Assembly (NCBI GenBank): GCA_903813345.2
Contig: CAIIXF020000012.1
Span: forward strand, 7,029,615-7,093,614
Direction of reading: 5' to 3'
Length of the DNA: 64,000 nt
DNA from: Owenia fusiformis
Taxonomy: Eukaryota > Annelida > Polychaeta > Sabellida > Oweniidae
Below are positions 13,256 through 63,410 of the stretch, piece by piece; position 1 is the stretch's first letter, and each line of letters opens with the position of its first letter. Below the pieces are notes generated by a model. That model ran no database searches and was not told the DNA's origin. It worked only from the letters and a program-made list of their open reading frames with translations. The position numbers were made by a program, and so were the translations under genes.

Positions 13256-13282
13256 AAATCTGGTTTATAAGCAACATTAAAA

Positions 13283-15321: not shown

Positions 15322-15432
15322 ATGGAGAGTAAGAGATCGTTTGCTTGGGCTTATTTCACCAAGGTAAATTATAAAGTTGTATGTGACTTGTGTAAATCAA
15401 GTCTCAAATATAGAGGAGGTACATCAGTATAA
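15322..15432 (+). pseudogene. BED-type zinc finger fragment (hAT/ZBED-like)
   Basis: The 36-codon frame starts MESKRSFAWAYFTKV and continues with VVCDLCKSSLKYRGGTS. That is the first half of a BED finger: aromatic W..F, then Cys-x2-Cys, then a basic loop with GGT(S). The distal His/Cys ligands are missing because the frame ends at TAA (15430). BED fingers are DNA-binding modules typical of hAT transposases and ZBED proteins. No transposase catalytic region follows. In the three upstream array units only the start of this exon remains, up to the repeat junction. The BED call is fairly firm. The hAT origin is inference. Confidence 0.6.
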
Positions 15433-22904: not shown

Positions 22905-23025
22905 GTATGGGTATGTTTAGTAACAATTTAAAACAATTTCATAAGTTTTTGTAGGCATATTATTTAGTTTTTATGAATATTTATGGATTAAACATGATGG
23001 AAATGTGATGGATATGTAGCAATCA

Positions 23026-23575
23026 TTGCTGGAAAAAACAAATATTGGACGTCAAAGTTGGACAGTAATTAAAATGGCCTACAAGGAATATCATAACAAG
23101 TACATTTCAAATATGTGCCGAATATGTGGAAATATAGCCCAGACATTTCATCAAATTCAAACTAAGGTCCCATATAATGATACAAAAAATAATAATGAAT
23201 ACATCTTGGATCATTATGGAGTCAATGTCAACAAGGATAATCCAGATATACATCCAAAGAAGTTATGCCAAACTTGCTATTCAAGAATGCGTTATCTTTT
23301 GAGGGATAATCAAAAGACTTACAATTTTTTTGTATGTTGAACATAATTCAGAATCATGTTCTACATGTAATCGCTTCAATGAATTTCGAAAAGGAGGCTG
23401 AAAACCTAAACCAAAACGAGGAGCACGTCGACCTCCAACAAAATATACCCCTCCATCTGAAGCTACACCCCTCTTGCTAGATGCTTCTACATCGTCAAAA
23501 CCTGATTCAGAAATATTTGTACACTCACTTGAAATATCATCTGACCCAACACCCCCCCCTTAGATATTCATATTG
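23026..23575 (+). pseudogene. N-RAG-like zinc-binding N-terminal ORF of a RAG/Transib-type element
   Basis: A frame open to 23340 contains NMCRICGNIAQTFHQ, then YGVNVNKDNPDIHPKKLCQ and TCYSRM. It shifts frame near 23333 and continues with SCSTCNRFNEFRKGG, one in-frame stop, then a basic Arg/Pro-rich linker (KPKPKRGARRPPTKY) and an acidic Ser-rich stretch. The order CxxC, D-x-P-x-I-H-P-x-K-L-C-x-x-C, a further CxxC and a basic GRPP-like linker resembles the RAG1 N-terminal-like proteins (N-RAG-TP) described from molluscs. The family call rests on motif order from memory of that family. No RAG1/Transib catalytic core is visible downstream, so this is an isolated and broken ORF. Confidence 0.45.
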
Positions 23576-33702: not shown

Positions 33703-33749
33703 GTTGACTTAATTTACAAATGTGGCGGAGCAGGTCATTTTTACAGAAA
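33703..33749 (+). repeat. left flanking direct repeat of the polymerase array
   Basis: TGTGGCGGAGCAGGTCATTT and its surroundings match 38416-38463 at most positions. The pair brackets the polymerase tandem array and its 0.6 kb tail. It may mark the insertion or recombination point. Confidence 0.7.
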
Positions 33750-34760
33750 GAATCATATCTCACTTTGAAGACCACTCTACATTGGGGGAAGTGTTTGGCA
33801 TAGCTAAATGTAAGATATTGCCGCCTCAAAAATTATATTATCCTGTATTTCCATACACAAGTTCAAATTCGAAGAAACTCACTTTTTCTTTGTGTGAGAA
33901 TTGTTCGGAAAATGAGAATCAAGAACCATGTACATGCAAGGAGGATGAGTGAAGTTTCACAGGCACTTGGGTAACGCCTGAATTGAATTTGGCATTAACA
34001 CATGGCTATAAACTTATTCACATTCACTAAGTATGGCATTTTCCCGAAACCACCAAATATGATTAGGTGAATTCTGAAAAAGAGCCCGAAAATCAATCGT
34101 ATTCGGGGATGTTCACCGATTATGTTAATACGTTTTTGAGACTTAAGCAGAAAGCCCCGGGTTTCCCAAAAAATCTTCCCGATGAAAAATCAAAATAAGC
34201 TTACATAGCTAATTACTTAGAACATGAAGGTATCGAATTGGATATTCGAGAAATTGTTACAAACTTGGCTCTCAGGGGTGTCGCGAAAATATCACTCAAT
34301 CCATCGTGGGGGAAATTCAGAATGCAGAATTCTTTTCTAAGTACCAAAATATTTGACCTGGATGAACTAGAAGATTTTTTCAAACTTCTGGCTGATACCA
34401 CTAAAAGTGTATTATCTTGGGATGTACTAGACGATGACTATCTTTTGGTAAATAATATTGACGATAAAACAACAGAAATAGAAAATGATAATACAAATAT
34501 ATTTTTGGCCGTTTATACAGCAGTTTATGGTCGCATTAAGATGTACGAAAAATTACATCAGTAGGGAACCAGGGTGTTGTATTACGACACCGATTCTACA
34601 TTTTACGTATCTAAGCCAAACAAGATGACTTGACATTGAGTAATTACCTGGGTGGATTGACGAATGAACTGACTGAAGACAATTACATAACGCATTTTGT
34701 TTCCAATGGTCCTAAGAACTACGCCTATTCAAACCAACACAAGAACCAACTTACTTTAAC
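33722..34760 (+). pseudogene. Polinton-type DNA polymerase B fragment, unit 1
   Basis: Reads FEDHSTLGEVFGIAKCKI and CENCSENENQEPCTCKEDE, then a TGA at 33950. It goes on through TPELNLALTHGYKLIHIH, a stop where the other units read GAA, FLRLKQKAPG, a TAA at 34195 private to this unit, then SLNPSWGKFRMQNSF. The last is polymerase motif B, with the K-x3-N-x-x-x-G type signature. After a TAG at 34562 comes RVLYYDTDSTFYV, motif C with its catalytic Asp pair. Family: protein-primed DNA polymerase of Polinton/Maverick elements. Dead copy. Confidence 0.85.
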
Positions 34761-34763
34761 TTT

Positions 34764-35783
34764 AAGAAAGAATCATATCTCACTTTGAAGACCACTCTAC
34801 ATTGGGGGAAGTGTTTGGCATAGCTAAATGTAAGATATTGCCGCCTCAAAAATTATATTATCCTGTATTTCCATACACAAGTTCAAAATCGAAGAAACTC
34901 ACTTTTTCTTTGTGTGAGAATTGTTCGGAAAATGAGAATCAAGAACCGTGTACATGCAAGGAGGATGAGTGAAGTTTCACGGGCACTTGGGTAACGCCTG
35001 AATTGAATTTGGCATTAACACATGGCTATAAACTTATTCACATTCACGAAGTATGGCATTTTCCCGAAACCACCAAATATGATTATTAGAATTCCGAAAA
35101 AGAGCCCGAAAATCAATCGTATTGGGGGATGTTCACCGATTATGTTAATAAGTTTTTGAGACTTAAGCAGAAAGCCCCGGGTTTCCCCAAAAATCTTCCC
35201 GATGAAAAATCAAAATTAGCTTACATAGCTAATTACTTAGAACATGAAGGTATCGAATTGGATATTCGAGAAATTGTTACAAACTTGGCTCTCAGGGGTG
35301 TCGCGAATATATCACTCAATCCATCGTGGGGGAAATTCGGAATGCAGAATTCTTTTCCAAGTACCAAAATATTTGACCTGGATGAACTAGAAGATTTTTT
35401 TAAACTTCTGGCTGATACCACTAAAAGTGTATTATCTTGGGATGTACTAGACGATGACTATCTTTTGGTAAATAATATTGACAATAAAACAACAGAAATA
35501 GAAAATGATAATAGAAATATATTTTTGGCCGTTTATACAGCAGTTTATGGTCGCATTAAGATGTATGAAAAATTACATCAGTAGGGAACCAGGGTGTTGT
35601 ATTACGACACCGATTCTACATTTTACGTATCTAAGCCAAACAAGATGATTTGACATTGAGTAATTACCTGGGTGGATTGACGAATGAACTGACTGAAGAC
35701 AATTACATAACGCATTTTGTTTCCAATGGTCCTAAGAACTACGCCTATTCAAACCAACACAAGAACCAACTTACTTTAACTTT
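34764..35783 (+). pseudogene. Polinton-type DNA polymerase B fragment, unit 2
   Basis: Same content as unit 1 and the same TGA after the KEDE tail and TAG before motif C. It lacks the private TAA of unit 1, so the middle part stays open (35129-35584). Motif B reads LNPSWGKFGMQ and motif C YYDTDS. These are palm and finger residues of family B polymerases that use a protein primer. Confidence 0.85.
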
Positions 35784-36802
35784 TAGAAAGAATCATATCT
35801 CACTTTGAAGACCACTCTACATTGGGGGAAGTGTTTGGCATAGCTAAATGTAAGATATTGCCGCCTCAAAAATTATATTATCCTGTATTTCCATACACAA
35901 GTTCAAAATCGAAGAAACTCACTTTTTCTTTGTGTGAGAATTGTTCAGAAAATGAGAATCAAGAACCATGTACATGCAAGGAGGATGAGTGAAGTTTCAC
36001 GGGCACTTGGGTAACGCCTGAATTGAATTTGGCATAACACATGGCTATAAACTTATTCACATTCACGAAGTATGGCATTTTCCCGAAACCACCAAATATG
36101 ATTAGGTGAATTCTGAAAAAGAGCCTGAAAATCAATCGTATTGGGGGATGTTCACCGATTATGTTAATACGTTTTTGAGACTTAAGCAGAAAGCCCCGGG
36201 TTTCCCCAAAAATCTTCCCGATGAAAAATCAAAATTAGCTTACATAGCTAATTACTTAGAACATAAAGGTATCGAATTGGATATTCGAGAAATTGTTACA
36301 AACTTGGCTCTCAGGGGTGTCGCGAATATATCACTCAATCCATCGTGGGGGAAATTCGGAATGCAGAATTCTTTTCCAAGTACCAAAATATTTGACCTGG
36401 ATGAACTAGAAGATTTTTTCAAACTTCTGGCTGATACCACTAAAAGTGTATTATCTTGGGATGTACTAGACGATGACTATCTTTTGGTAAATAATATTGA
36501 CAATAAAACAACAGAAATAGAAAATGATAATACAAATATATTTTTGGCCGTTTATACAGCAGTTTATGGTCGCATTAAGATGTACGAAAAATTACATCAG
36601 TAGGGAACCAGGGTGTTGTATTACGACACCGATTCTACATTTTACGTATCTAAGCCAAACAAGATGACTTGACATTGAGTAATTACCTGGGTGGATTGAC
36701 GAATAAACTGACTGAAGACAATTACATAACGCATTTTGTTTCCAATGGTCCTAAGAACTACGCCTATTCAAACCAACACAAGAACCAACTTACTTTAACT
36801 TT
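35784..36802 (+). pseudogene. Polinton-type DNA polymerase B fragment, unit 3
   Basis: Shares the TGA and TAG of the other units and has its own one-base deletion near 36033 in the NLALTH segment. The middle part is open from 36106 to 36603 and keeps motif B. The downstream part keeps motif C and the LGGLTN(E/K)L and GPKNYAY segments that follow motif C in this polymerase family. Confidence 0.85.
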
Positions 36803-37790
36803 TAGAAAGAATCATATCTCACTTTGAAGACCACTCTACATTGGGGGAAGTGTTTGGCATAGCTAAATGTAAGATATTGCCGCCTCAAAAATTATATTAT
36901 CCTGTATTTCCATACACAAGTTCAAAATCGAAGAAACTCACTTTTTCTTTGTGTGAGAATTGTTCGGAAAATGAGAATCAAGAACCATGTACATGCAAGG
37001 AGGATGAGTGAAGTTTCACGGGCACTTGGGTAACGCCTGAATTGAATTTGGCATTAACACATGGCTATAAACTTATTCACATTCACGAAGTATGGCATTT
37101 TCCCGAAACCACCAAATATGATTAGGTGAATTCTGAAAAAGAGCCTGAAAATCAATCGTATTGGGGGATGTTCACCGATTATGTTAATATGTTTTTGAGA
37201 CTTAAGCAGAAAGCCCCGGGTTTCCCCAAAAATCTTCCCGATGAAAAATCAAAATTAGCTTACATAGCTAATTACTTAGAACATGAAGGTATCGAATTGG
37301 ATATTCGAGAAATTGTTACAAACTTGGCTCTCAGGGGTGTCGCGAATATATCACTCAATCCATCGTGGGGGAAATTCAGAATGCAGAATTCTTTTCCAAG
37401 TACCAAAATATTTGACCTGGATGAACTAGAAGATTTTTTCAAACTTCTGGCTGATACCACTAAAAGTGTATTATCTTGGGATGTACTAGACGATGACTAT
37501 CTTTTGGTAAATAATATTGACAATAAAACAACAGAAATAGAAAATGATAATACAAATATATTATTGGCCATTTATACAGCAGTTTATGGTCGCATTAAGA
37601 TGTACGAAAAATAACATCAGTAGGGAACCAGGGTGTTGCATTACAACACAGATTCTACATTTTACGTATCTAAGCCAAACAGGATGACTTGACATTGAGT
37701 AATTACCTGGGTGGATTGACGAATGAACTGACTGAAGACGATTACATAACGCATTTTGTTTCCACTGGTCCTAAGAACTACGCCTATTTG
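36803..37790 (+). pseudogene. Polinton-type DNA polymerase B fragment, unit 4
   Basis: Middle part open from 37126 to 37614, here ending at a new TAA (MYEK then stop) a few codons before the shared TAG. In motif C the TAC-GAC of the other copies is changed to TAC-AAC (37644), so the first catalytic Asp is lost. Downstream it reads LGGLTNELTEDDYITHFVS and GPKNYAY, then leaves the repeat near 37790. Confidence 0.85.
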
Positions 37791-42323: not shown

Positions 42324-45205
42324 ATGAGTAACCCATCGAATGCAAATTTGACAAATGAACAAACAGAATCTTTTGATTTAGTTTATAGAGGAAGAACTAC
42401 CTTTAAAAATGCCGTGGTTAAATTCATATACGACTCTACGATAGAGGAGGTAAATGAGGGGGCTCTGCTACGTAATCATAATGATACTCTAGAATGTATA
42501 TTTAGGAATATTTTGATAGAGAGCACTTGTGCCCATCATGATCACGACATGATACACATTGTTATTCAATACACCGATTTACAAACGCCAATTATTGTAA
42601 CGGCTAGATGTGTACGTGACATGACCAGTTCTGACATTTTGAACAAAGTAGAGAGCACTTTAAATTCTAACGAAACGTTGAAAATGGATTCGTAACTAAA
42701 TATTATTGTGTCAATTATCAAAATGCCATCAGGCTTAGGTCGTGTAAAAATACAAACACGTGATGACTTAAAACCAGTGCCAGTTGACAACTTTGATTCT
42801 TTTGAAGTATTGCTAGATTGTAAAATTATAATTGTGACCCAGAGACAAAGGAGATAAGATTACATATATCAACAAAAAGATGTGAAAATATACACATACA
42901 ATTTTTGTATTTTTGACCTACGATCCTACTTCATTATGACGCAGTAATTAATTATAAAGGTCTTTTCAACATGGATTTTTGTTATGGTTGTTCCAATTTT
43001 TATTCTAACGATAATCATAGTTGTAAATAAGTGTGACATATGTAACGAGACAAATGACAAGTGTATCGTTATTCCTGACGAGGTGCGGTCATGTGACGAA
43101 TGCTTAAAGAGTAACAATGCTTGTTACGAGAGGCATAAATTTGGTCGAGGTACATCGAACAATGTACCTCAAAAATCTTTATGTGAGGCTCGTTGGTATT
43201 GCATTACATGTGATAGATCGTATCTCGAAGAAGGTATCACATAAGTCGCATAAATGTGACCATTACAAGTATTACATATGTCACTATATTGTTCCTTACG
43301 ATCATATATGTTACATGAGAGCAGAGCCATTAAACTTTACCAAAAAGTTTAAAGTTGTATTTTACGATTTTGAAACACATCAAGATTCGATTATTCAATG
43401 TCGAGATGGTTATAAGCCTTATAACAAGGATAAATGCAATTTGTGTACAGAAAATGAAGTTTGCGCCGAGTGTAAGCTATGTACCAACTGTAATAGCTCC
43501 AAATGCTCTAGGCAACAACATACACCTATTTACGTAGCCGCCTTTTCAATTTGCTATCATTGTGTGGATAAAACAGAACTGGAGAAATGTTCCCATTGCG
43601 GTACACGTTGTTCTTGGCTCAAAACTCGAAAGGGTACGATTCATATTTTGTCTTGAAATATTTCTTGAGTGTTGGAATACATATATCCAACTTGACTTGT
43701 TCCGATTTAAAAATTACTTTGTTACAGATAGGACCATCACAAATTTTGGTGATACTATTAACCATTTGAATATGGCTCTTGCAAAGTTACCCAAAGCATT
43801 TGGGTTGCCTGAATTATCCAAGGGATTTTTCCCACATTTTATAGATTTGAATTCAGTAAATTAAAACATGTTTTATATTTGTATTGTTATATAGTTCATT
43901 TTATCAGGGCCAATAGTGCCTAGGCGTAGGCCCTGTACTACTGTATTGTACGACTTATTATTATGAAATAAAGAAAACATGAAAACTTGAATTATCCAAG
44001 GGATTTTTCCCACATTTTATAGATTTGAAATCAGTAAATTACGACAGGTTTTATATTTGTATTGTTATATAGTTAATCTTAACAGGGCAAATAGTGCCTA
44101 GGCGTAGGCACTGTACTACTGTATTGTACGACTTATTATTATGAAATAAAGAAAACATGAAAAAAAGTAAATTACGAGGGGGATATGGAATACCCCCCAC
44201 AAAGTGCTTACGGTCACGAAAATATGACTCATCAAAGACAGTTAGAATTTTACCATTGGTATCAGAGGGTAAAAGAAGAGGGGAAATTTAACTACACCGA
44301 AAGTCTAGCCTTCTATTGTAAGCAAGACGTTAGGATATTAGCTCAGAGTTTCATGAAATATAGGAATATGGTACTTTACGCAACATTTGACTTGGTCAAT
44401 CCAGGAATAGACCCATTGAGTTATTTAACAAATGCTAAAATGTGCCTTGCTATTTTCAGATCAAATTTTCTGAGAGAATATCACACGTGTACATTAAAAA
44501 ATCAATCAACCCAATCACTGGTATGAATTACCAACATATGTGTGAGATTACCGCAACACTTTGGAAAAATTGAAAGAAATATTCCCACTTGAGATAGTGA
44601 ATCATGAATGCGAGTTTAAAAAGGAAGTGAATCAAAATTTTGAGTTGTCAAAGTTTATGGCTACACTTAACTTAGTGGACCATCTGAACCCTAGAGACTC
44701 ATTTTTTGGAGGCAGATGAAAAACTCGGAGAGCAAATGCGTTACGTAGATTTCACCTCGCTTTATCCTAGCGTAATGAAATAAATAAATAATAAATAATG
44801 AAATTTTGACACATTTTGAAACTCACGCAACATTGGGGGAAATGTTTGGTATTGTGAAATGTAAAATATTAGCACCTAGGGACTTGTACCACCCTGTGCT
44901 ACCATAAGTTCAAAATCAAGCAAATTAACTTTTGCTTTATGTCAAAAATGTTGAGAAACTGAAAATCAAGAGGCGTGTATGTGTAACACGGATGAATGTA
45001 GTTTTACAGGCACCTTGGCAAAACCTGAATTGAATCTGGCATTAACACATGGGTATAACCTTTTACACATTTACGAATTATGGCATTTTCCCCCGAGACT
45101 ACCAAATATGATAAGAAGAATTTTGAAAAAGATCCCGAAAATCAAACACATTGGGGTATATTTACTGAATATGAGAACACATTTCTCCGTTTGAAGCAGC
45201 AGGCC
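42324..45205 (+). pseudogene. Polinton/Maverick protein-primed DNA polymerase B, decayed
   Basis: Most of the gene is present in several frames. In order: an N-terminal region (42324-42695, then MPSGLGRVKI at 42723); Cys/His-rich zinc segments (about 42970-43320, with CDICNETNDKC, WYCITCDRSY, HICYMRA); Exo I FYDFETH (43365); Exo II NSKGYDSYFVL (43615, another frame); ESLAFYCKQDVRIL with the Exo III Asp (44300); RDSFFGGR (44695); and motif A YVDFTSLYPSVMK (44745). Next come HATLGEMFGIVKCKIL and NLALTHGYNLLHIYELWHF, and coding breaks off after FLRLKQQ at about 45200. Motifs B and C are absent. Stops, shifts and a small duplicated insertion (43811-44166) show a dead gene. It is clearly related to the 33.7-37.8 kb array, but where the array has TGA this copy keeps Cys. 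Confidence 0.88.
43811..44166 (+). repeat. 178-bp tandem duplication inserted in the polymerase
   Basis: Two consecutive 178-base units. Each has about 50 bases of polymerase coding (ELSKGFFPHF...) followed by ~125 bases containing GTGCCTAGGCGTAGGC and ending TATGAAATAAAGAAAACATG. The second part looks like the 3' end of a short reverse-transcribed element with an A-rich tail. The polymerase part would be its target duplication. Polymerase coding resumes after it at 44168. Confidence 0.8.
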
Positions 45206-45738
45206 TCAGTCACCAGTATTTCACACATTTTTAAGTCCCTAAATGAACAAGCCTTTAGAAAGGGAGACAATGGTATCTCGAGTGGCTTAGTAAAAAAAAG
45301 GTTCTTTTTTAAGTAGACCTTATCAGATGATTCGACAGACGGGTCTGCTCCATATTGAATAAGAAGCTCAACCAGTTCCCGATTTCCCACCATTACTGCA
45401 CAAAATAACGGAGTCGCGTTATAGATCAATTTTGGTTTTGCAGTGGATAGGTCTAGAATACTACCTGATAAATCAATGTCTCTGATGAAACCAGATTTCA
45501 ATAAAAAAGATACAACATCTGTATTGTGATGCATTACGGCGAGCATCAAACAAGATACCGCTTCGCCATCATCAAATGCATATGTTTGGTTTAATTTCTG
45601 TATTCCTTCTTCACGAGACATAGAATTAAACTCTTTCAAAAAATCGTTAAGACTTCCATTTGATATAACATTGATTAGCTTACTTTTAGACATCTTTATT
45701 AAATAAATATACAAACTTATGCAATGTAGAAAGGACAA
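45142..45738 (-). CDS. ankyrin-repeat protein, 3' end fused to Polinton DNA
   Basis: The likely start is the internal Met at 45693 (MSKSKLINVIS), preceded by TTTATTTAATAAAG on the coding strand. The upstream Met at 45738 adds a hydrophobic tail that looks like leader. Three ankyrin repeats are visible: LMLAVMHHNTDVVSFLLKSG, TPLFCAVMVGNRELVELLIQ and SPFLKACSFRDLKMCEILV. Ankyrin repeats bind proteins and are common in accessory genes of large DNA viruses. The last ~20 codons are the reverse complement of polymerase sequence (45142-45205), so the natural C-terminus was lost at the junction. First gene of the compact minus-strand cluster. Fold call firm, role unknown. Confidence 0.7.
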   Translation of the reverse strand: MSFLHCISLYIYLIKMSKSKLINVISNGSLNDFLKEFNSMSREEGIQKLNQTYAFDDGEAVSCLMLAVMHHNTDVVSFLLKSGFIRDIDLSGSILDLSTAKPKLIYNATPLFCAVMVGNRELVELLIQYGADPSVESSDKVYLKKNLFFTKPLEIPLSPFLKACSFRDLKMCEILVTEACCFKRRNVFSYSVNIPQCV

Positions 45739-45894
45739 TATCTAAATCAATGTGCAATTTTATGAAGCTATAGTATAATAGGAAAACCTTTGATATTTCA
45801 ACAATTATTCGTACGATAATTGAGGTGTAAATATGTTCAAATAAATATCATATTACAATTTTCATTTATTTCGGAAATATATTCGTGCTAGGCG

Positions 45895-46458
45895 TTAAAG
45901 CATCCCGAAAGAACACGTAGAGTTATAGTCCATTTTGAGTATTTGGTCGTAATACGCCAAACATCCTCCGTCGCAATTTGTAAAATCTCTCGAAAGGCCT
46001 CGAAAATATGAGGGGACGACGCTCGAATTAGCTCCATATCCGAAAGGAATCATCCTGGGAAGATTTTTTTTCTCTTTCATTCGATCGTATATAAACTTAT
46101 AGATTAATCGCGCGCTTTCCGAAAGCCCCTTCCTATTAATATGCATAAGAAATATCTTAGCTTTGTCTATAACTGGTGCCAATGTTTTTCGCCAGTCTGG
46201 TATACTGGTATTGAAGGTTTCTAATATCATTCCGACGTTATGTAGATTGTCATTTAGATCAGTGAACAACACAACCAGCTTATATTTTTCGTAAGACGAT
46301 ACTTCAGAATCGTACAAAATAAAATATTGAAACATAAAGGGATTAATTGTTCTCGATATTTTGACAACATTTGCGTCTCGTTTTGCAAGACTCTTCGCTT
46401 GTGATAGACAGGCGAGAGAGGCTATCAGAAAACATGACTTCACGAAGAACAAATACAT
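45895..46458 (-). CDS. secreted glycoprotein, unrecognised (187 aa)
   Basis: Starts MYLFFVKSCFLIASLACLSQ and has a textbook signal peptide with probable cleavage after SQA (residue 21). The mature part has three N-glycosylation sites (NTS, NSS, NST), a beta-strand-like KLVVLFTDLNDN segment and a final Cys-rich end (CDGGC, CSFGML). No membrane segment follows, so it should be secreted. A TATATATA-type box (46536-46547, minus strand) lies about 80 bases before the ATG. I do not recognise the family. Its place between ankyrin and SH2 genes and its secreted nature fit a host-interaction role, by inference only. Intact, no introns. Confidence 0.6.
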   Translation of the reverse strand: MYLFFVKSCFLIASLACLSQAKSLAKRDANVVKISRTINPFMFQYFILYDSEVSSYEKYKLVVLFTDLNDNLHNVGMILETFNTSIPDWRKTLAPVIDKAKIFLMHINRKGLSESARLIYKFIYDRMKEKKNLPRMIPFGYGANSSVVPSYFRGLSRDFTNCDGGCLAYYDQILKMDYNSTCSFGML

Positions 46459-46535
46459 AATTATTTCGCTCGAAGAAAAGAGTTTCGCTGGAGATCGAAT
46501 TGCAAAAATATTTTTAATGCAGAGAGAGATTCGAA

Positions 46536-46547
46536 CATATATATAAC
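46536..46547 (-). promoter_or_regulatory. TATA box for the secreted glycoprotein gene
   Basis: On the minus strand the sequence reads GTTATATATATG, about 80 bases upstream of the ATG at 46458. It is the only strong TATA element in the gap between this gene and the SH2 gene. Confidence 0.45.
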
Positions 46548-46570
46548 AAATATCTAATACGTCATATCGA

Positions 46571-46642
46571 AAGTTTTATTCAAAATTTTATTAAAAATTT
46601 TATTCAACATTTTATTGAAAGTATTATTCAAATATTTATTCA
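46571..46642 (-). terminator. 12-bp-periodic poly(A)-signal repeat after the SH2 gene
   Basis: On the minus strand AATAAA ends five times at an exact 12-base rhythm or its double (TTTATT at 46575, 46587, 46599, 46611 and 46635 on the plus strand). An AATAAT fills the missing position (46623). It lies 30-100 bases after the SH2 stop codon, as expected for polyadenylation signals. Confidence 0.55.
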
Positions 46643-46672
46643 CGATTTCTTTAGAGAAAGAATCATTCACAT

Positions 46673-47068
46673 CTACTCTAAATAGAAGTTTTCGTTCGAC
46701 GATATTCCTTCTTTTAGAATAAGCGGGTGTAACAAGGGAATTGCATAATCTTCTGAATCTTCACGAGAATGATTTTGAATCATATATTTCGATATCAATC
46801 CTACAACACATTTATCAAAAGTAAGAGTATGACCACAGAAGAAAAAATATCCATTTTTACATTCACATCTTATATTTTTGATTCCGTTTTCTGTTTTGAT
46901 CATCACCGTAAATAAATACGATGGGTGTGCGCTATTTCGGACCAAAAAAGTTCCATTCCTCTTCGATTTTAATACATTGCTGCAATCTTTAAAAGTAGCA
47001 AAGGGATAATAGAAACCAATTTCGTTTAGTTCTTTTAATAACTCCGAATAGCTGCTTTCTATAGACAT
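46673..47068 (-). CDS. SOCS/CIS-like SH2-domain protein without SOCS box
   Basis: 131 residues, nearly all SH2 domain. A short N-terminal helix (LLKELNEIGFYYPFATFKDC) matches the extended region before the SH2 domain of SOCS proteins. Then comes GTFLVRNSAHPSYLFTVMIK with the FLVR phosphotyrosine-binding Arg at residue 44, followed by strands NGIKNIRCEC and NGYFFF. After the domain comes YAIPLLHPLIL and a 15-residue acidic tail. There is no SOCS box, so it should bind phosphotyrosine but not recruit an elongin/cullin ligase. A protein of this kind could compete with host cytokine-receptor signalling in the cytosol, by inference. The first 10 bases of the gene overlap the end of the 353-residue gene. 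Confidence 0.78.
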   Translation of the reverse strand: MSIESSYSELLKELNEIGFYYPFATFKDCSNVLKSKRNGTFLVRNSAHPSYLFTVMIKTENGIKNIRCECKNGYFFFCGHTLTFDKCVVGLISKYMIQNHSREDSEDYAIPLLHPLILKEGISSNENFYLE

Positions 47069-48120
47069 CGAGATTTATCACAAATTTTCTCAATTCTATT
47101 GGAAACGATTTCGTTAAATGCAATAGGTCGTTTAAAAAATCTTTTATCAATAAAAAATAACGCCCACAACCTTTGCTTTTGATATGATTTTTTAGCAATT
47201 TGAAATTCCCTAGAAATCTCTCCCATTTGCGACAAAATATCTATCCAATATTGTTTTATGTCGTAAAAATTGATTGATCCGGCTAATTTATTTTCGTGTG
47301 AGGGTTGCACATCTTCAGCTTGAGCGTGAAAAAATGAAAACAATGTAAACGCTTTAGACGCCTTTTTGCTTATGTTGATCCAATTATACAACGACAATAT
47401 TCTAATGAAATAAACCATAAGAACTGAAAATAAATAGTCATACGAGTTATATTTATGACAATCATATTCGTGTACCATTTCATGGAAATCTAAACAATGT
47501 AATATTGCGTACGATATAACATTCGATTTCGTACGCATTTGTAGAAAAGTCACCAATATCAAATCTTTTATTATATTTTCCCGGGAAAAAGAATGAAAAA
47601 TATTAAATCCAATGTGGAGTTCGTTACGACTTTCGTCATAAATGTCGTTCAATGTGTTACAAATTGTTATACAATTTTTGAAATATAAATCAATTAATTT
47701 TGATATCACAACCTGGCCCGGATAAAACAAACCCTTCAAACTGGGAAAGCAGCCGTTGCAGTGAATGTTCCACACCATCTCTACGCAATTACTATTTTCT
47801 ATTTCATAATTTAAATGAACGCTGGATGTAAAATATTTTCGATGAATTGCTACATTTTTTAGGTATTCTGATTCATCCTGGAAAATGATGTAACTGCTAT
47901 ATACACTAAATGAATTTGCTTTAAATTCATCTGGAAAATATTCGTTTTCCAATGATTTCGTCAAACATGCGTTCAGATATTTCTTAAATAAATTTTCGTG
48001 TCCATTGTTTTCATGGTTCTTTAGAAACAATATGTTTTCAAATGTGTTTTGATGAAGATTTCGCATTCTCCTGTCTATCGAATTAATCGGCTTTAAATTT
48101 TCTTCAATCAGTTGATGCAT
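47059..48120 (-). CDS. 353-residue protein, unrecognised
   Basis: Intact, intronless ORF starting MHQLIEENLKPINSI. It is Tyr/Phe/Asn/Ile-rich and mostly helical, with no signal peptide. It contains WNIHCNGCFPSLKG (residues ~110-125) and a His/Cys-rich LHCLDFHEMVHEYDCHKYN (~205-225), followed by a hydrophobic stretch YLFSVLMVYFIRILSLYNW that could be buried or membrane-associated. The His/Cys cluster might bind metal, but I see no known motif. Its start overlaps the TNFR-like gene by 17 bases and its end overlaps the SH2 gene by 10 bases. This is polycistron-like packing typical of DNA viruses. Family unknown. Confidence 0.65.
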   Translation of the reverse strand: MHQLIEENLKPINSIDRRMRNLHQNTFENILFLKNHENNGHENLFKKYLNACLTKSLENEYFPDEFKANSFSVYSSYIIFQDESEYLKNVAIHRKYFTSSVHLNYEIENSNCVEMVWNIHCNGCFPSLKGLFYPGQVVISKLIDLYFKNCITICNTLNDIYDESRNELHIGFNIFHSFSRENIIKDLILVTFLQMRTKSNVISYAILHCLDFHEMVHEYDCHKYNSYDYLFSVLMVYFIRILSLYNWINISKKASKAFTLFSFFHAQAEDVQPSHENKLAGSINFYDIKQYWIDILSQMGEISREFQIAKKSYQKQRLWALFFIDKRFFKRPIAFNEIVSNRIEKICDKSRCL

Positions 48121-48637
48121 CTTCGTGTAATGGTTGACAGTCTGATGGAATTCTGTTTTTTCTATTTCTATTCTTAACTATCTCTAACATCAAAACACAG
48201 AAGAGAATAACGACGTTCAATGCAACAATTGCTTGAGAAATTGATATCCATTTGTACGACAGTTGTTCTACATTTGAATACTTTTTTCCGTTTACATCGG
48301 GCTCGCTTGTGTAACTACAAAGAGTATCGAAAAATGTGGAACAATTTGAAATTATTTGTCCGTTAGGAAAACAATCTGAACAGAAAACACAGGTTTTAAA
48401 TAAAGGCTCTATATATTCGTTTTCCTTCACGGGTCTACAAATGGTATCGACATTTTGGCTGCAAGGCATTTCGACGCATCCATTTGGAAAACATTTTGTG
48501 CAAGGAAGACAATTACCATCTGAGTCCAAATATTGTTCGATTGAGGAACAACTCGAGTTCGTGTCAATTAATCTTCCGATTGACACAGATACGTTTAAAA
48601 CTATATAATAAATAACTGCTGTCAAAACTTTTTTCAT
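48104..48637 (-). CDS. TNF-receptor-like membrane protein, no death domain
   Basis: 177 residues. Signal peptide MKKVLTAVIYYIVLNVSVSI, then two cysteine-rich domains. The first has Cys at 30, 43, 46, 49, 54, 59 and 67 (CLPCTKCFPNGC, ending DTIC). The second has Cys at 83, 86, 89, 99 and 107 (CVFCSDCFPNG, ending DTLC). The C-x2-C-x2-C and D-T-x-C pattern is the TNFR signature. A transmembrane helix (residues ~130-154) is followed by only ~23 cytoplasmic residues, too short for a death domain. It would bind a TNF-family ligand or partner at the cell surface without death signalling. That fits a decoy, or a herpes- or poxvirus-style receptor mimic, by inference. One exon, whereas animal TNFRs have several. 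Confidence 0.8.
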   Translation of the reverse strand: MKKVLTAVIYYIVLNVSVSIGRLIDTNSSCSSIEQYLDSDGNCLPCTKCFPNGCVEMPCSQNVDTICRPVKENEYIEPLFKTCVFCSDCFPNGQIISNCSTFFDTLCSYTSEPDVNGKKYSNVEQLSYKWISISQAIVALNVVILFCVLMLEIVKNRNRKNRIPSDCQPLHEDASTD

Positions 48638-48751
48638 ATTGAAAATCTTTAATGAAATAGTATTTTCATATATTACAGAAAATACGTAAATTCAACGCAA
48701 ATGATTTCGGGATAATGAAAATGAGAGCTCGAATATTTCTTATAAACGAAT

Positions 48752-48880
48752 CGCGTGACGTCATTTTCGACCATTTTTGTGATCTTATAACTTTCTTTAC
48801 TAGAAATACGATTCGATAGAAAAATACTTTCCCTAAATAAGTTAAAAGAACACAAAAATTGTCGAAAGTGACGTCACGCG
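48752..48880. promoter_or_regulatory. 43-bp inverted repeat with two CRE sites between divergent genes
   Basis: Left arm 48752-48794 and right arm 48838-48880 are near-perfect inverse complements (core CGCGTGACGTCA(T/C)TTTCGAC, then ATTTTTGTG), separated by about 43 bases. Each arm holds TGACGTCA, the palindromic CREB/ATF site. It sits between the start of the minus-strand TNFR-like gene (48637) and the plus-strand gene at 49117. It could be a bidirectional promoter or enhancer, or a replication origin, since palindromes with factor sites are common at viral origins. The structure is seen. The role is inferred. Confidence 0.75.
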
Positions 48881-49116
48881 TAATTTTTGAATAGAATAGT
48901 CAAGTGATTTAAATCGACGATCGTTAAAATTTCTTTTAAACAGTTGGACTTATTCTATTAACATTTTTAACAAAGAAATATTTTAAGAGCCACAGTTGCT
49001 GCAAAAAATTCCAGTTTCTGTTCTAAATTGTTCGAGTACAGTTGGACATATTGCTTTTTCTTTCTCCCTTTTCCCAAGAGATTGCAAGGATTTATTAAAT
49101 TTATCGAAATAGAAGA

Positions 49117-50322
49117 ATGAAAATTCAACATATATACATCTCGGATCCGCGGAACGATTGCGTAAATGTTTACACAACTAAGGTTCACGAAGGAAATGTT
49201 CTAAATACGTCTCATAGACAAAACGTTTCATTGTCGAAGCTCAACTCATCTATTCCGAAGAAGTCGGACTACATATATGTTGTCGTTATATTTTCTCCTC
49301 GAGTAAAAATAATTGAAAGTAAACTTACGTTTGTTCCCGGTATTAATTGTAAAAATTATTACACAAGAGAAATTAATTGGGAACTACTCCCTAACCAAAA
49401 GGAAGCAATTTGTCATCCTCTAAATGCAGAACTTCTGTTCATTTTGAAAAACAATACCAGCATTCGTCATTCCGTTTCAATTGATACGGAACTAAAGATA
49501 GGAGATCTGTTGCAAATTGGCTTGAAGGAACCAGACGAAGTATTCAGCGAAGAACCCGCTTTGAAAAAGACAAAGTTTGATAAAGAAATTAACAGACAAA
49601 AGCCAAAGACAAAGCTTGATAACATACAAAAGTCAAGGTTTTTAGAAGTTCTTTCACACATCGATTTTAATTCATTTTTTCAATTCCAATCAGGTGAGCA
49701 AGTCATTCGTCTTTTATTAAAATTGATGAAAAAGAATTTAACAGAATTCGTATTGAAAGATAATTCGTCAGATAAACTTTGCCAACGATATTCCGAAAAG
49801 GTTTATTCCATCTTGAAGAGGAAGATTAAGAGTCAAAATATAAGTAAACATGTGTTGGATTATATTTTTCAAATAGTCGGGATCAGCGAAAATGTTTTCG
49901 TATTGGATGAATTTTCGTTTATTTGTTCGAAACAAATTGAAGATTTAATCGTTACTTCTCGCGGTCAAGAAGGCGATCATTCTTTCAAAAGCAGTCTTAG
50001 ACTAGACGAGGGATATTTCATTTCCTTCCACATTGCTCCGAATATTTCAGTATTGTATTCTTATACGGAAGTGGAAGAAAGCGACGAAACTGTTATTCAA
50101 TTTGTAACTCTTTCCAAGATATTAGAATCCATTTTGGTGAAGGCTCCGGAATATTTCAAAATATTTGTCGAAGAATTAAGGAGTCGTTCCAACGAGATTA
50201 TCACTTTCATTAGCAATCTTTGTTTCGACATTGATGCAGGCTGCTCTGAGTCCGATAAAAGTTATCACGAATCCATCAAAAGAAAAGACGCGGAACGATT
50301 GCGTAAATGTTTACACAACTAA
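49117..50322 (+). CDS. unrecognised gene, first tandem copy with native start
   Basis: ATG at 49117 (MKIQHIYISDPRNDC) is the only copy with its own start region. The protein has a beta-rich first third (YIYVVVIFSPRVKIIESKLT), a Lys-rich basic linker near residues 145-175 (ALKKTKFDKEINRQKPKTK) that could be a nuclear localisation signal, and a helical second half. At codon ~391 the frame meets the repeat junction and ends in the out-of-frame tail AERLRKCLHN. So this copy is truncated relative to the version at the right end of the array. Not recognised. Placed in the compact cluster, divergent from the TNFR-like gene. Confidence 0.6.
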   Translation: MKIQHIYISDPRNDCVNVYTTKVHEGNVLNTSHRQNVSLSKLNSSIPKKSDYIYVVVIFSPRVKIIESKLTFVPGINCKNYYTREINWELLPNQKEAICHPLNAELLFILKNNTSIRHSVSIDTELKIGDLLQIGLKEPDEVFSEEPALKKTKFDKEINRQKPKTKLDNIQKSRFLEVLSHIDFNSFFQFQSGEQVIRLLLKLMKKNLTEFVLKDNSSDKLCQRYSEKVYSILKRKIKSQNISKHVLDYIFQIVGISENVFVLDEFSFICSKQIEDLIVTSRGQEGDHSFKSSLRLDEGYFISFHIAPNISVLYSYTEVEESDETVIQFVTLSKILESILVKAPEYFKIFVEELRSRSNEIITFISNLCFDIDAGCSESDKSYHESIKRKDAERLRKCLHN

Positions 50323-51463
50323 GGTTCACGAAGGAAATGTTCTAAATACGTCTCATAGACAAAACGTTTCATTGTCGAAGCTCAACTCATCTATTCCGAA
50401 GAAGTCGGACTACATATATGTTGTCGTTATATTTTCTCCTCGAGTAAAAATAATTGAAAGTAAACTTACGTTTGTTCCCGGTATTAATTGTAAAAATTAT
50501 TACACAAGAGAAATTAATTGGGAACTACTCCCTAACCAAAAGGAAGCAATTTGTCATCCTCTAAATGCAGAACTTCTGTTCATTTTGAAAAACAATACCA
50601 GCATTCGTCATTCCGTTTCAATTGATACGGAACTAAAGATAGGAGATCTGTTGCAAATTGGCTTGAAGGAACCAGACGAAGTATTCAGCGAAGAACCCGC
50701 TTTGAAAAAGACAAAGTTTGATAAAGAAATTAACAGACAAAAGCCAAAGACAAAGCTTGATAACATACAAAAGTCAAGGTTTTTAGAAGTTCTTTCACAC
50801 ATCGATTTTAATTCATTTTTTCAATTCCAATCAGGTGAGCAAGTCATTCGTCTTTTATTAAAATTGATGAAAAAGAATTTAACAGAATTCGTATTGAAAG
50901 ATAATTCGTCAGATAAACTTTGCCAACGATATTCCGAAAAGGTTTATTCCATCTTGAAGAGGAAGATTAAGAGTCAAAATATAAGTAAACATGTGTTGGA
51001 TTATATTTTTCAAATAGTCGGGATCAGCGAAAATGTTTTCGTATTGGATGAATTTTCGTTTATTTGTTCGAAACAAATTGAAGATTTAATCGTTACTTCT
51101 CGCGGTCAAGAAGGCGATCATTCTTTCAAAAGCAGTCTTAGACTAGACGAGGGATATTTCATTTCCTTCCACATTGCTCCGAATATTTCAGTATTGTATT
51201 CTTATACGGAAGTGGAAGAAAGCGACGAAACTGTTATTCAATTTGTAACTCTTTCCAAGATATTAGAATCCATTTTGGTGAAGGCTCCGGAATATTTCAA
51301 AATATTTGTCGAAGAATTAAGGAGTCGTTCCAACGAGATTATCACTTTCATTAGCAATCTTTGTTTCGACATTGATGCAGGCTGCTCTGAGTCCGATAAA
51401 AGTTATCACGAATCCATCAAAAGAAAAGACGCGGAACGATTGCGTAAATGTTTACACAACTAA
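50231..51463 (+). CDS. tandem copy 2 of the 49117 gene
   Basis: The open frame spans 410 codons, but its first ~21 codons (MMQAALSPIKVITNPSKEK) are an out-of-frame reading of the previous unit's end. Native coding starts at TRNDCVNVYTT. It has no native start and no native end, so it is unlikely to be an independent gene. Confidence 0.4.
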   Translation: MMQAALSPIKVITNPSKEKTRNDCVNVYTTKVHEGNVLNTSHRQNVSLSKLNSSIPKKSDYIYVVVIFSPRVKIIESKLTFVPGINCKNYYTREINWELLPNQKEAICHPLNAELLFILKNNTSIRHSVSIDTELKIGDLLQIGLKEPDEVFSEEPALKKTKFDKEINRQKPKTKLDNIQKSRFLEVLSHIDFNSFFQFQSGEQVIRLLLKLMKKNLTEFVLKDNSSDKLCQRYSEKVYSILKRKIKSQNISKHVLDYIFQIVGISENVFVLDEFSFICSKQIEDLIVTSRGQEGDHSFKSSLRLDEGYFISFHIAPNISVLYSYTEVEESDETVIQFVTLSKILESILVKAPEYFKIFVEELRSRSNEIITFISNLCFDIDAGCSESDKSYHESIKRKDAERLRKCLHN

Positions 51464-52604
51464 GGTTCACGAAGGAAATGTTCTAAATACGTCTCATAGA
51501 CAAAACGTTTCATTGTCGAAGCTCAACTCATCTATTCCGAAGAAGTCGGACTACATATATGTTGTCGTTATATTTTCTCCTCGAGTAAAAATAATTGAAA
51601 GTAAACTTACGTTTGTTCCCGGTATTAATTGTAAAAATTATTACACAAGAGAAATTAATTGGGAACTACTCCCTAACCAAAAGGAAGCAATTTGTCATCC
51701 TCTAAATGCAGAACTTCTGTTCATTTTGAAAAACAATACCAGCATTCGTCATTCCGTTTCAATTGATACGGAACTAAAGATAGGAGATCTGTTGCAAATT
51801 GGCTTGAAGGAACCAGACGAAGTATTCAGCGAAGAACCCGCTTTGAAAAAGACAAAGTTTGATAAAGAAATTAACAGACAAAAGCCAAAGACAAAGCTTG
51901 ATAACATACAAAAGTCAAGGTTTTTAGAAGTTCTTTCACACATCGATTTTAATTCATTTTTTCAATTCCAATCAGGTGAGCAAGTCATTCGTCTTTTATT
52001 AAAATTGATGAAAAAGAATTTAACAGAATTCGTATTGAAAGATAATTCGTCAGATAAACTTTGCCAACGATATTCCGAAAAGGTTTATTCCATCTTGAAG
52101 AGGAAGATTAAGAGTCAAAATATAAGTAAACATGTGTTGGATTATATTTTTCAAATAGTCGGGATCAGCGAAAATGTTTTCGTATTGGATGAATTTTCGT
52201 TTATTTGTTCGAAACAAATTGAAGATTTAATCGTTACTTCTCGCGGTCAAGAAGGCGATCATTCTTTCAAAAGCAGTCTTAGACTAGACGAGGGATATTT
52301 CATTTCCTTCCACATTGCTCCGAATATTTCAGTATTGTATTCTTATACGGAAGTGGAAGAAAGCGACGAAACTGTTATTCAATTTGTAACTCTTTCCAAG
52401 ATATTAGAATCCATTTTGGTGAAGGCTCCGGAATATTTCAAAATATTTGTCGAAGAATTAAGGAGTCGTTCCAACGAGATTATCACTTTCATTAGCAATC
52501 TTTGTTTCGACATTGATGCAGGCTGCTCTGAGTCCGATAAAAGTTATCACGAATCCATCAAAAGAAAAGACGCGGAACGATTGCGTAAATGTTTACACAA
52601 CTAA
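51372..52604 (+). CDS. tandem copy 3 of the 49117 gene
   Basis: Identical translation to copy 2, with the same artificial start and the same out-of-frame end. No sign of divergence. Confidence 0.4.
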   Translation: MMQAALSPIKVITNPSKEKTRNDCVNVYTTKVHEGNVLNTSHRQNVSLSKLNSSIPKKSDYIYVVVIFSPRVKIIESKLTFVPGINCKNYYTREINWELLPNQKEAICHPLNAELLFILKNNTSIRHSVSIDTELKIGDLLQIGLKEPDEVFSEEPALKKTKFDKEINRQKPKTKLDNIQKSRFLEVLSHIDFNSFFQFQSGEQVIRLLLKLMKKNLTEFVLKDNSSDKLCQRYSEKVYSILKRKIKSQNISKHVLDYIFQIVGISENVFVLDEFSFICSKQIEDLIVTSRGQEGDHSFKSSLRLDEGYFISFHIAPNISVLYSYTEVEESDETVIQFVTLSKILESILVKAPEYFKIFVEELRSRSNEIITFISNLCFDIDAGCSESDKSYHESIKRKDAERLRKCLHN

Positions 52605-53745
52605 GGTTCACGAAGGAAATGTTCTAAATACGTCTCATAGACAAAACGTTTCATTGTCGAAGCTCAACTCATCTATTCCGAAGAAGTCGGACTACATATA
52701 TGTTGTCGTTATATTTTCTCCTCGAGTAAAAATAATTGAAAGTAAACTTACGTTTGTTCCCGGTATTAATTGTAAAAATTATTACACAAGAGAAATTAAT
52801 TGGGAACTACTCCCTAACCAAAAGGAAGCAATTTGTCATCCTCTAAATGCAGAACTTCTGTTCATTTTGAAAAACAATACCAGCATTCGTCATTCCGTTT
52901 CAATTGATACGGAACTAAAGATAGGAGATCTGTTGCAAATTGGCTTGAAGGAACCAGACGAAGTATTCAGCGAAGAACCCGCTTTGAAAAAGACAAAGTT
53001 TGATAAAGAAATTAACAGACAAAAGCCAAAGACAAAGCTTGATAACATACAAAAGTCAAGGTTTTTAGAAGTTCTTTCACACATCGATTTTAATTCATTT
53101 TTTCAATTCCAATCAGGTGAGCAAGTCATTCGTCTTTTATTAAAATTGATGAAAAAGAATTTAACAGAATTCGTATTGAAAGATAATTCGTCAGATAAAC
53201 TTTGCCAACGATATTCCGAAAAGGTTTATTCCATCTTGAAGAGGAAGATTAAGAGTCAAAATATAAGTAAACATGTGTTGGATTATATTTTTCAAATAGT
53301 CGGGATCAGCGAAAATGTTTTCGTATTGGATGAATTTTCGTTTATTTGTTCGAAACAAATTGAAGATTTAATCGTTACTTCTCGCGGTCAAGAAGGCGAT
53401 CATTCTTTCAAAAGCAGTCTTAGACTAGACGAGGGATATTTCATTTCCTTCCACATTGCTCCGAATATTTCAGTATTGTATTCTTATACGGAAGTGGAAG
53501 AAAGCGACGAAACTGTTATTCAATTTGTAACTCTTTCCAAGATATTAGAATCCATTTTGGTGAAGGCTCCGGAATATTTCAAAATATTTGTCGAAGAATT
53601 AAGGAGTCGTTCCAACGAGATTATCACTTTCATTAGCAATCTTTGTTTCGACATTGATGCAGGCTGCTCTGAGTCCGATAAAAGTTATCACGAATCCATC
53701 AAAAGAAAAGACGCGGAACGATTGCGTAAATGTTTACACAACTAA
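52513..53745 (+). CDS. tandem copy 4 of the 49117 gene
   Basis: As copies 2 and 3. Absence of even silent differences, as far as can be read, suggests a very recent event or an assembly artefact. Confidence 0.4.
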   Translation: MMQAALSPIKVITNPSKEKTRNDCVNVYTTKVHEGNVLNTSHRQNVSLSKLNSSIPKKSDYIYVVVIFSPRVKIIESKLTFVPGINCKNYYTREINWELLPNQKEAICHPLNAELLFILKNNTSIRHSVSIDTELKIGDLLQIGLKEPDEVFSEEPALKKTKFDKEINRQKPKTKLDNIQKSRFLEVLSHIDFNSFFQFQSGEQVIRLLLKLMKKNLTEFVLKDNSSDKLCQRYSEKVYSILKRKIKSQNISKHVLDYIFQIVGISENVFVLDEFSFICSKQIEDLIVTSRGQEGDHSFKSSLRLDEGYFISFHIAPNISVLYSYTEVEESDETVIQFVTLSKILESILVKAPEYFKIFVEELRSRSNEIITFISNLCFDIDAGCSESDKSYHESIKRKDAERLRKCLHN

Positions 53746-55000
53746 GGTTCACGAAGGAAATGTTCTAAATACGTCTCATAGACAAAACGTTTCATTGTCG
53801 AAGCTCAACTCATCTATTCCGAAGAAGTCGGACTACATATATGTTGTCGTTATATTTTCTCCTCGAGTAAAAATAATTGAAAGTAAACTTACGTTTGTTC
53901 CCGGTATTAATTGTAAAAATTATTACACAAGAGAAATTAATTGGGAACTACTCCCTAACCAAAAGGAAGCAATTTGTCATCCTCTAAATGCAGAACTTCT
54001 GTTCATTTTGAAAAACAATACCAGCATTCGTCATTCCGTTTCAATTGATACGGAACTAAAGATAGGAGATCTGTTGCAAATTGGCTTGAAGGAACCAGAC
54101 GAAGTATTCAGCGAAGAACCCGCTTTGAAAAAGACAAAGTTTGATAAAGAAATTAACAGACAAAAGCCAAAGACAAAGCTTGATAACATACAAAAGTCAA
54201 GGTTTTTAGAAGTTCTTTCACACATCGATTTTAATTCATTTTTTCAATTCCAATCAGGTGAGCAAGTCATTCGTCTTTTATTAAAATTGATGAAAAAGAA
54301 TTTAACAGAATTCGTATTGAAAGATAATTCGTCAGATAAACTTTGCCAACGATATTCCGAAAAGGTTTATTCCATCTTGAAGAGGAAGATTAAGAGTCAA
54401 AATATAAGTAAACATGTGTTGGATTATATTTTTCAAATAGTCGGGATCAGCGAAAATGTTTTCGTATTGGATGAATTTTCGTTTATTTGTTCGAAACAAA
54501 TTGAAGATTTAATCGTTACTTCTCGCGGTCAAGAAGGCGATCATTCTTTCAAAAGCAGTCTTAGACTAGACGAGGGATATTTCATTTCCTTCCACATTGC
54601 TCCGAATATTTCAGTATTGTATTCTTATACGGAAGTGGAAGAAAGCGACGAAACTGTTATTCAATTTGTAACTCTTTCCAAGATATTAGAATCCATTTTG
54701 GTGAAGGCTCCGGAATATTTCAAAATATTTGTCGAAGAATTAAGGAGTCGTTCCAACGAGATTATCACTTTCATTAGCAATCTTTGTTTCGACATTGATG
54801 CAGGCTGCTCTGAGTCCGATAAAAGTTATCACGAATCCATCAAAAGAAAAGACGAAAGAGTATTTAAATTATTCGTGATCATGGATAAATGTATATCTTT
54901 CACTGAACGATTGGACAAGGATAAATGTCAGCCGAAATTCATGAATTTAACAATAAAAAATTCAAATTCGTCTTTATTCGTGTCGTATTTGACAGAGAAT
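53654..55000 (+). CDS. tandem copy 5, continuing into unique 3' coding and the gap
   Basis: Unlike the others, this copy passes the junction point at 54852 in frame and continues with DERVFKLFVIMDKCISF and TERLDKDKCQPKFMN up to the run of N at 55001. So the real gene extends beyond the 1141-bp repeat, and its C-terminus is lost in the gap. The artificial first codons are as in copies 2-4. Function unknown. The basic linker and helical C-terminal half are as in copy 1. Confidence 0.6.
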
Positions 55001-55500
55001 NNNNNNNNNNNNNNNNNNNNNNNNNNNNNNNNNNNNNNNNNNNNNNNNNNNNNNNNNNNNNNNNNNNNNNNNNNNNNNNNNNNNNNNNNNNNNNNNNNNN
55101 NNNNNNNNNNNNNNNNNNNNNNNNNNNNNNNNNNNNNNNNNNNNNNNNNNNNNNNNNNNNNNNNNNNNNNNNNNNNNNNNNNNNNNNNNNNNNNNNNNNN
55201 NNNNNNNNNNNNNNNNNNNNNNNNNNNNNNNNNNNNNNNNNNNNNNNNNNNNNNNNNNNNNNNNNNNNNNNNNNNNNNNNNNNNNNNNNNNNNNNNNNNN
55301 NNNNNNNNNNNNNNNNNNNNNNNNNNNNNNNNNNNNNNNNNNNNNNNNNNNNNNNNNNNNNNNNNNNNNNNNNNNNNNNNNNNNNNNNNNNNNNNNNNNN
55401 NNNNNNNNNNNNNNNNNNNNNNNNNNNNNNNNNNNNNNNNNNNNNNNNNNNNNNNNNNNNNNNNNNNNNNNNNNNNNNNNNNNNNNNNNNNNNNNNNNNN
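55001..55500. other. assembly gap (500 N)
   Basis: Exactly 500 N, a conventional fixed-size scaffold gap, so the true distance is unknown. The apparent coding across it is meaningless. It separates the virus-like cluster from host repeats, so the right boundary of the cluster is not visible. Confidence 0.98.
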
Positions 55501-63283: not shown

Positions 63284-63410
63284 ATAAAAAGTACATGACT
63301 TTGAACCCATGCACAGTAAAATTCAATAATTCTAGGATAGAAAATACTATTTTCTATCCTAGAATTATTGAATTTTACTGTGCATGGGTTCAAAGTCATG
63401 TACTTTTTAT
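63284..63410. repeat. perfect palindrome, 63-bp arms, 1-bp centre
   Basis: 63284-63346 is the exact inverse complement of 63348-63410, around a single C at 63347. Arms begin ATAAAAAGTACATGACTTTG. Either a real hairpin-forming palindrome or a fold-back artefact. Confidence 0.95.

What the first reader, a model, noticed from the sequence alone, without database searches (positions are those of the whole stretch)
45200..55000. Compact virus-like cluster of cytokine-signalling mimics embedded in a host genome
Seen: at least six intact, intronless ORFs, with most of 45.2-55.0 kb coding, while everything around is decayed repeats. Contents: TNFR-like receptor without death domain, SOCS/CIS-like SH2 without SOCS box, secreted glycoprotein, ankyrin-repeat protein and two unknowns. 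Established: TNFR mimics (pox-, herpesviruses), SOCS-like and ankyrin genes (iridoviruses, poxviruses) are typical accessory genes of large DNA viruses. Inference: this is the accessory part of an integrated large DNA virus or virus-like mobile element of an invertebrate, possibly undescribed.
Basis: partly seen in the sequence, partly recalled or inferred. Interest (0 to 1): 0.9.

Follow-up and report, generated by a model that had tools for sequence, protein, structure and literature searches.

The report
Virus-like gene block in animal genome
A 10-kb stretch of an animal chromosome assembly looks like a piece of an unidentified large DNA virus carrying look-alikes of the animal's immune-signalling genes that lack the parts needed to pass a signal on.

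Summary
From 45,210 to at least 55,000 lies a foreign-looking island of intronless, partly overlapping ORFs: a TNFR with no death domain found, a SOCS-like SH2 with no SOCS box, a secreted protein, ankyrin repeats and two unknowns. Five ATG ORFs of at least 120 aa occur in 5.1 kb (shuffles: 0.05). CpG observed/expected is 1.45; flanking median 0.46. Corrections: the ankyrin ORF is cut by a junction at 45,209/45,210 with a decayed Polinton-type polymerase gene; unknown-401 stands as five identical 1,141-bp tandem units; the island ends at a 500-N gap, so one junction is visible. New: a 42-nt-arm palindrome with a CRE in each arm between divergent genes, and a second such island on contig C279 (about 17.4-25.0 kb, CpG 1.40, five unrecognised ORFs) about 4 kb from a copy of that Polinton. 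The host has a TNFR family whose nearest member appears spliced (42% identity) and a SOCS with SOCS box, so these look like captured, truncated relatives. Best reading: pieces of an unidentified large DNA virus, integrated recently or joined by the assembler. Three core-gene searches gave nothing, without a positive control; the virus family is unknown.

The parts
44200..45209 (+). Decayed Polinton-type DNA polymerase B (host repeat) at which the island begins; left junction at 45,209/45,210
   Evidence: host copies on C279 and C9 continue where the window diverges (read by eye)
45210..45693 (-). Ankyrin-repeat ORF, cut off by the junction (ORF in the window runs to 45,142, its last 22 aa being host antisense)
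45895..46458 (-). Predicted secreted protein, 187 aa, N-terminal hydrophobic stretch, 3 N-glycosylation sequons; no family
46673..47068 (-). SOCS-like SH2 protein, 131 aa, FLVR motif kept (motif recalled, seen in the translation), no SOCS box
47059..48120 (-). Unknown 353-aa protein; overlaps the ORF on each side (10 and 17 bp); one place in the genome at E <= 0.1
48104..48637 (-). TNFR-like receptor, 177 aa: hydrophobic N-terminus, two TNFR_c6 stretches, transmembrane-like stretch, short tail, no death domain matched
48752..48880 (.). Imperfect palindrome (42-nt arms, 90% complementary, 45-nt spacer) with TGACGTCA in each arm, between divergent genes; candidate promoter/enhancer or replication origin
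49117..50322 (+). Unknown 401-aa ORF, first copy
49149..54853 (+). Five identical tandem copies of a 1,141-bp unit of the unknown-401 gene; 2-bp microhomology at the breakpoints
54854..55000 (+). Reading frame of the last copy, running into the scaffold gap
55001..55500 (.). 500-N gap; right end of the island not visible

Best explanation
The island 45,210-55,000 is a piece of the accessory region of an unidentified large double-stranded DNA virus (or virus-like element) of this animal or a relative, joined to an old Polinton copy either in the animal (recent integration) or by the assembler; the confidence given covers both. A second piece, perhaps of the same virus, is on C279. Likely mechanism (inference from domains): the TNFR, a membrane-anchored ectodomain with no signalling domain, soaks up host TNF-family ligand; the SH2 protein, without SOCS box, binds phosphotyrosine sites of cytokine receptors without recruiting the degradation machinery and blocks them; the ankyrin and secreted proteins are further host-interaction factors; the divergent CRE palindrome lets host CREB/ATF-type factors switch on the TNFR and unknown-401 early, or serves as an origin. 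Unknown-401 has been amplified in tandem, as poxviruses do under host pressure (recalled). Shown: composition, compactness, missing domains, junction, array. Inferred: viral origin, integration, functions.
For: CpG obs/exp 1.45 against median 0.46, maximum 0.90, in 100 flanking 2-kb windows; 0.53-1.04 over nine host TNFR/SOCS/SH2 loci and 0.43-0.76 over three flanking loci. ORF density. Overlapping genes. TNFR keeps the 12 ectodomain cysteines that are invariant in the alignment with five host relatives and scores higher against the host family (52.6 bits) than against any PDB TNFR (17.4 bits), yet is intronless where the nearest host gene appears split (read by eye). SOCS box in host SOCS, absent here. 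Both unknowns occur at one locus in the genome. Palindrome z = -10.3; 38/42 matches against at most 29 in 40 simulations. Second island on C279: CpG 1.40, five ATG ORFs against 0.04 in shuffles, its largest ORF at one place only.
Against: No viral hallmark gene identified; no close relative in IMG/VR for six proteins; for the two unknowns only the window's own proteins in the 5.8-billion set. Six C279 frames have no Pfam match above cut-off (best E 0.0029, a phage-tail model). Codon use does not set the island apart from the one host ORF compared: NCG codons 3.84% against 3.09%, CGN share of Arg 0.47 against 0.46. CpG over the ankyrin part is low (13 seen, 15.6 expected). The SH2 scores better with mammalian SOCS3 (50.3 bits) than with the host SOCS (42.7 bits), so capture from this host is not shown for it. 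The island ends at a contig end, as a chimera would. No clear sequence link between the two islands (best blastp E 0.010).
Confidence: 0.7

Rival explanations
1. Assembly chimera: DNA of a virus infecting the sequenced animal was joined to a host contig end by the assembler; the virus is real, the integration is not. (A version of the best explanation; the two confidences overlap.)
For: Island lies next to a 500-N gap; exact 1,141-bp copies; the C279 island also runs to the contig end; very high CpG fits little time under host methylation.
Against: Both islands are contiguous with host DNA and near copies of the same Polinton family (directly here, about 4 kb away on C279), which random chimeras would not predict.
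Confidence: 0.35
2. Cargo of the Polinton element itself: the gene blocks belong to a cargo-bearing Polinton/adintovirus lineage rather than to a separate large virus.
For: Both islands are near the same Polinton family; Polintons and adintoviruses carry cargo (recalled).
Against: The junction cuts through the polymerase gene; that gene is broken and its 400-bp windows have CpG 0.54-0.76 while the island is mostly 1.1-2.4; six island genes plus five C279 ORFs exceed usual cargo (recalled).
Confidence: 0.12
3. Host genes: an unmethylated, recently retroposed cluster of host immune genes.
For: Host has TNFR and SOCS relatives; one host 2.1-kb TNFR locus reaches CpG 1.04.
Against: Six adjacent intronless genes with overlaps; two of them at no other place in the genome; TNFR only 42-43% identical to the nearest host copies.
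Confidence: 0.06
4. DNA of an intracellular bacterium (ankyrin and SH2 effectors exist in Legionella).
For: Start of the abstract of PMC6208348 in the listing reports 93 Legionella SH2 domains; the ankyrin ORF hits Dot/Icm AnkY and AnkX models weakly, far below their cut-offs (23 bits of 600), as it hits a TRP channel model.
Against: TNFR with host-type ectodomain; AATAAA downstream of two of four gene ends checked; no close relative of unknown-401 in genomes of 84,980 prokaryote species (the only island protein tried there).
Confidence: 0.03

Closest known systems
Viral TNFR mimics (cytomegalovirus UL144; poxvirus and iridovirus TNFRs, recalled)
   Same: Cysteine-rich ectodomain, no death domain found; UL144 is among the PDB matches
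   Different: Ectodomain is closest to this animal's own TNFR family; E-value to UL144 only 0.034
SOCS family and viral SOCS-like proteins (the latter recalled)
   Same: SH2 best matched by SOCS3 and SOCS2
   Different: No SOCS box
Poxvirus gene accordion (recalled)
   Same: Exact tandem copies of one gene with tiny breakpoint homology
   Different: Virus and gene unknown; the array could be an assembly product
Baculovirus hr / herpesvirus palindromic origins (recalled)
   Same: Palindrome with CRE motifs between divergent genes
   Different: One copy seen; no initiator-binding site shown; copies elsewhere could not be searched
Endogenous nimaviruses and malacoherpes-like insertions in invertebrates (recalled)
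   Same: Virus blocks inside host chromosomes
   Different: No core gene of either found here; tests without positive control

Membership tests
TNF receptor superfamily | Repeated TNFR_c6 cysteine-rich domains | tested here: met
   (two stretches, 30.8 bits against cut-off 29.4)
TNF receptor superfamily (death receptors) | Cytoplasmic death domain | tested here: not met
   no match up to E 10; tail about 20 aa after the hydrophobic stretch
SOCS/CIS | SH2 domain of SOCS type | tested here: met
   SH2 above cut-off
SOCS/CIS | C-terminal SOCS box | tested here: not met
   host SOCS positive
Herpesvirales | Terminase DNA_pack_C in the assembly | tested here: inconclusive
   no match, no control rang
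Nucleocytoviricota | Major capsid protein Capsid_NCLDV in the assembly | tested here: inconclusive
   no match, no control rang
Naldaviricetes (baculo-, nudi-, nimavirus) | PIF (PF05092) in the assembly | tested here: inconclusive
   no match, no control rang
Endogenous (germline) virus | Both host-virus junctions and a target site | tested here: inconclusive
   left junction only; right side is a gap
Large DNA virus | Virion and replication genes on the same molecule | tested here: inconclusive
   six island ORFs and six C279 frames scanned with Pfam, none a virion or replication gene; the rest of the molecule is not seen

The most novel reading that the evidence does not exclude
An undescribed lineage of large DNA virus of an invertebrate, caught in the germline twice near one Polinton family, carrying TNF-receptor and SOCS decoys taken from animal hosts and a freshly amplified accessory gene: a natural gene accordion in an invertebrate virus. 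That would imply that TNF- and JAK/STAT-type signalling are antiviral in this animal.
Probability: 0.3. Interest if true: 0.85.

Novelty: new variant of a known kind. Interest (0 to 1): 0.66.

Why it matters
If the reading holds, the virus itself points to host pathways worth blocking: TNF-type and cytokine-receptor/JAK-STAT-type signalling in an invertebrate, whose antiviral roles are less settled than in vertebrates (recalled). It would also add an unplaced virus lineage, with eleven genes on two contigs to follow, and a possible case of recent gene amplification.

Tried and rejected
AlphaFold2 single-sequence models of unknown-353 (pLDDT 32) and the secreted protein (42) were too poor to search. 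PDB sequence searches of the two unknowns and the secreted protein gave weak or no matches, best E 0.0074; the C279 334-aa frame none below E 1.4. NCBIfam: nothing over a cut-off. Rfam at gathering cut-offs: none in the window. IMG/VR scans with six island proteins and one palindrome pattern: none confirmed. 5.8-billion-protein search with unknown-401 and unknown-353: only the window's own. Codon use did not separate island from host. Paper searches answered; no title or abstract start in their listings describes this cluster; apart from PMC9977687 no paper was opened.
Full report
Where it is. The window is C12:7,029,615-7,093,614 of a 498-Mb assembly of 525 contigs, species unnamed. It has one gap, 500 N at 55,001-55,500.

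The island. ORFs of 187, 131, 353, 177 and 401 aa plus a cut ankyrin ORF lie between 45,210 and 50,322. The 131- and 353-aa ORFs overlap by 10 bp and the 353- and 177-aa ORFs by 17 bp. Five ATG ORFs of at least 120 aa were counted in 45,206-50,322; 300 Markov shuffles gave 0.047 on average and at most one. CpG observed/expected is 1.45 in 45,206-50,288; 100 flanking 2-kb windows range from 0.20 to 0.90 with median 0.46. As a control, nine host TNFR/SOCS/SH2 loci have 0.53-1.04, five Polinton loci 0.61-0.87 and three neighbouring 10-kb loci 0.43-0.76; the only loci above that were the two that hold the second island (L032 0.90 and L033 1.39). The ankyrin part is lower than the rest (13 CpG against 15.6 expected).

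Left junction. The sequence left of 45,209 is a Polinton-type DNA polymerase (PF03175; Polinton is my label). Copies on C279, C9 and C8 match up to the end of the query at 45,205, and by eye to 45,209 on C279 and C9, where they continue as polymerase-like sequence and the window does not. The ankyrin ORF therefore ends in host antisense sequence and is cut. No blastn match links the island to the flanks.

Right side. The array ends at 54,853 and the last frame enters the gap. After the gap, 55,501-55,806 matches C279 once in full (85%) and twice in part (83-84%) within the first 9.9 kb of that contig, so it is a host repeat. The right junction is not seen.

Array. Five units of 1,141 bp are identical, with one matching base on either side of the breakpoints, i.e. 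2-bp microhomology. This is either a fresh amplification or an assembly product; reads would tell.

Palindrome. Between the divergent TNFR and unknown-401 genes an inverted repeat of 42-nt arms (90%, spacer 45) carries TGACGTCA in each arm. These are the only two TGACGTCA in the window; 7 of 100 shuffles have at least two, so the octamers alone are not striking. The hairpin is: z -10.3 as single-stranded DNA, 38 of 42 matches against at most 29 in 40 simulations and 26-31 in six other window stretches. Its role as promoter, enhancer or origin is inference, and copies elsewhere in the genome could not be searched.

Mimics. The TNFR has two cysteine-rich stretches, a transmembrane-like stretch and a tail of about 20 aa. 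In this genome 13 places match it at E up to 0.1, itself included; the best other is 42% identical over 75 residues on C2. That host gene, read by eye only, appears split into at least four exons and ends in a short tail too, so lack of a death domain may be inherited from the host family rather than lost. The 12 ectodomain cysteines are invariant in the six sequences aligned (five of seven fetched host loci were used). The SH2 protein matches SOCS3 and SOCS2 best in the PDB (50.3 bits). In this genome three places match at E up to 0.01, itself included; the best, on C9 (42.7 bits), has a SOCS box by Pfam, the island protein does not.

Relatives. Unknown-401 and unknown-353 match only this locus in the genome. 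Six island proteins found no relative in IMG/VR, unknown-401 none in prokaryote genomes, and unknown-401 and unknown-353 only the window's own proteins among 5.8 billion. These scans reach close relatives only.

Second island. The CpG control exposed C279 from about 17.4 kb to its end at 25.0 kb. CpG is 1.40 there and 0.76 in 9,901-17,399; it holds five ATG ORFs of at least 120 aa (337, 481, 216, 324, 214 aa, all on one strand, the last three touching or one base apart) against 0.04 in 300 shuffles, and the neighbouring 7.5 kb holds one. The nearest Polinton match found by the window's sequence ends at 13,489, about 4 kb away. None of six frames scanned from L033 has a Pfam match above cut-off; the 340-aa frame in L032 was not scanned. 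The largest occurs once in the genome. blastp between six island and five C279 proteins gave nothing better than E 0.010, and the CRE octamer is absent from C279:9901-25000, so the two islands are linked by composition, gene style and the Polinton neighbourhood, not by sequence. They may be two parts of one virus; that is inference.

Core genes. DNA_pack_C, Capsid_NCLDV and PIF gave no match in the genome; no control genome rang in any of them, so absence is not shown.

Verdict. Integration against chimera stays open, at about even odds within the viral reading.

Noticed in passing
L032/L033 (C279:17400-25000): Second CpG-rich block of five dense, intronless ORFs without known family (four of the five scanned with Pfam), on a contig that also holds a Polinton piece 97% identical to the window's over 312 bp.
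   Followed up: partly
L032 7352-7870 (C279:17252-17770): A stretch of about 520 bp aligns to its own reverse complement at 79%: a long imperfect palindrome at the edge of the second island, perhaps an element end.
   Followed up: no
33745-37620: Four tandem copies (about 1,020 bp; 300-nt pieces 87-99% alike) of a Polinton polymerase fragment.
   Followed up: partly
23020-23340: ORF with a Pfam match to the RAG1 importin-binding domain (E 7.9e-8), perhaps a RAG1/Transib-type transposon relic.
   Followed up: no
63284-63410: Perfect inverted repeat of 63-nt arms with 1-nt spacer.
   Followed up: no
46570-46642: AT-rich 12-bp repeat array between the SH2 and secreted genes, with AATAAA in that gene's 3' end.
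   Followed up: no
L011, L014, L015, L016 (C2:20.14-20.21 Mb): Host TNFR family in a local cluster, among the nearest host relatives of the island TNFR.
   Followed up: partly
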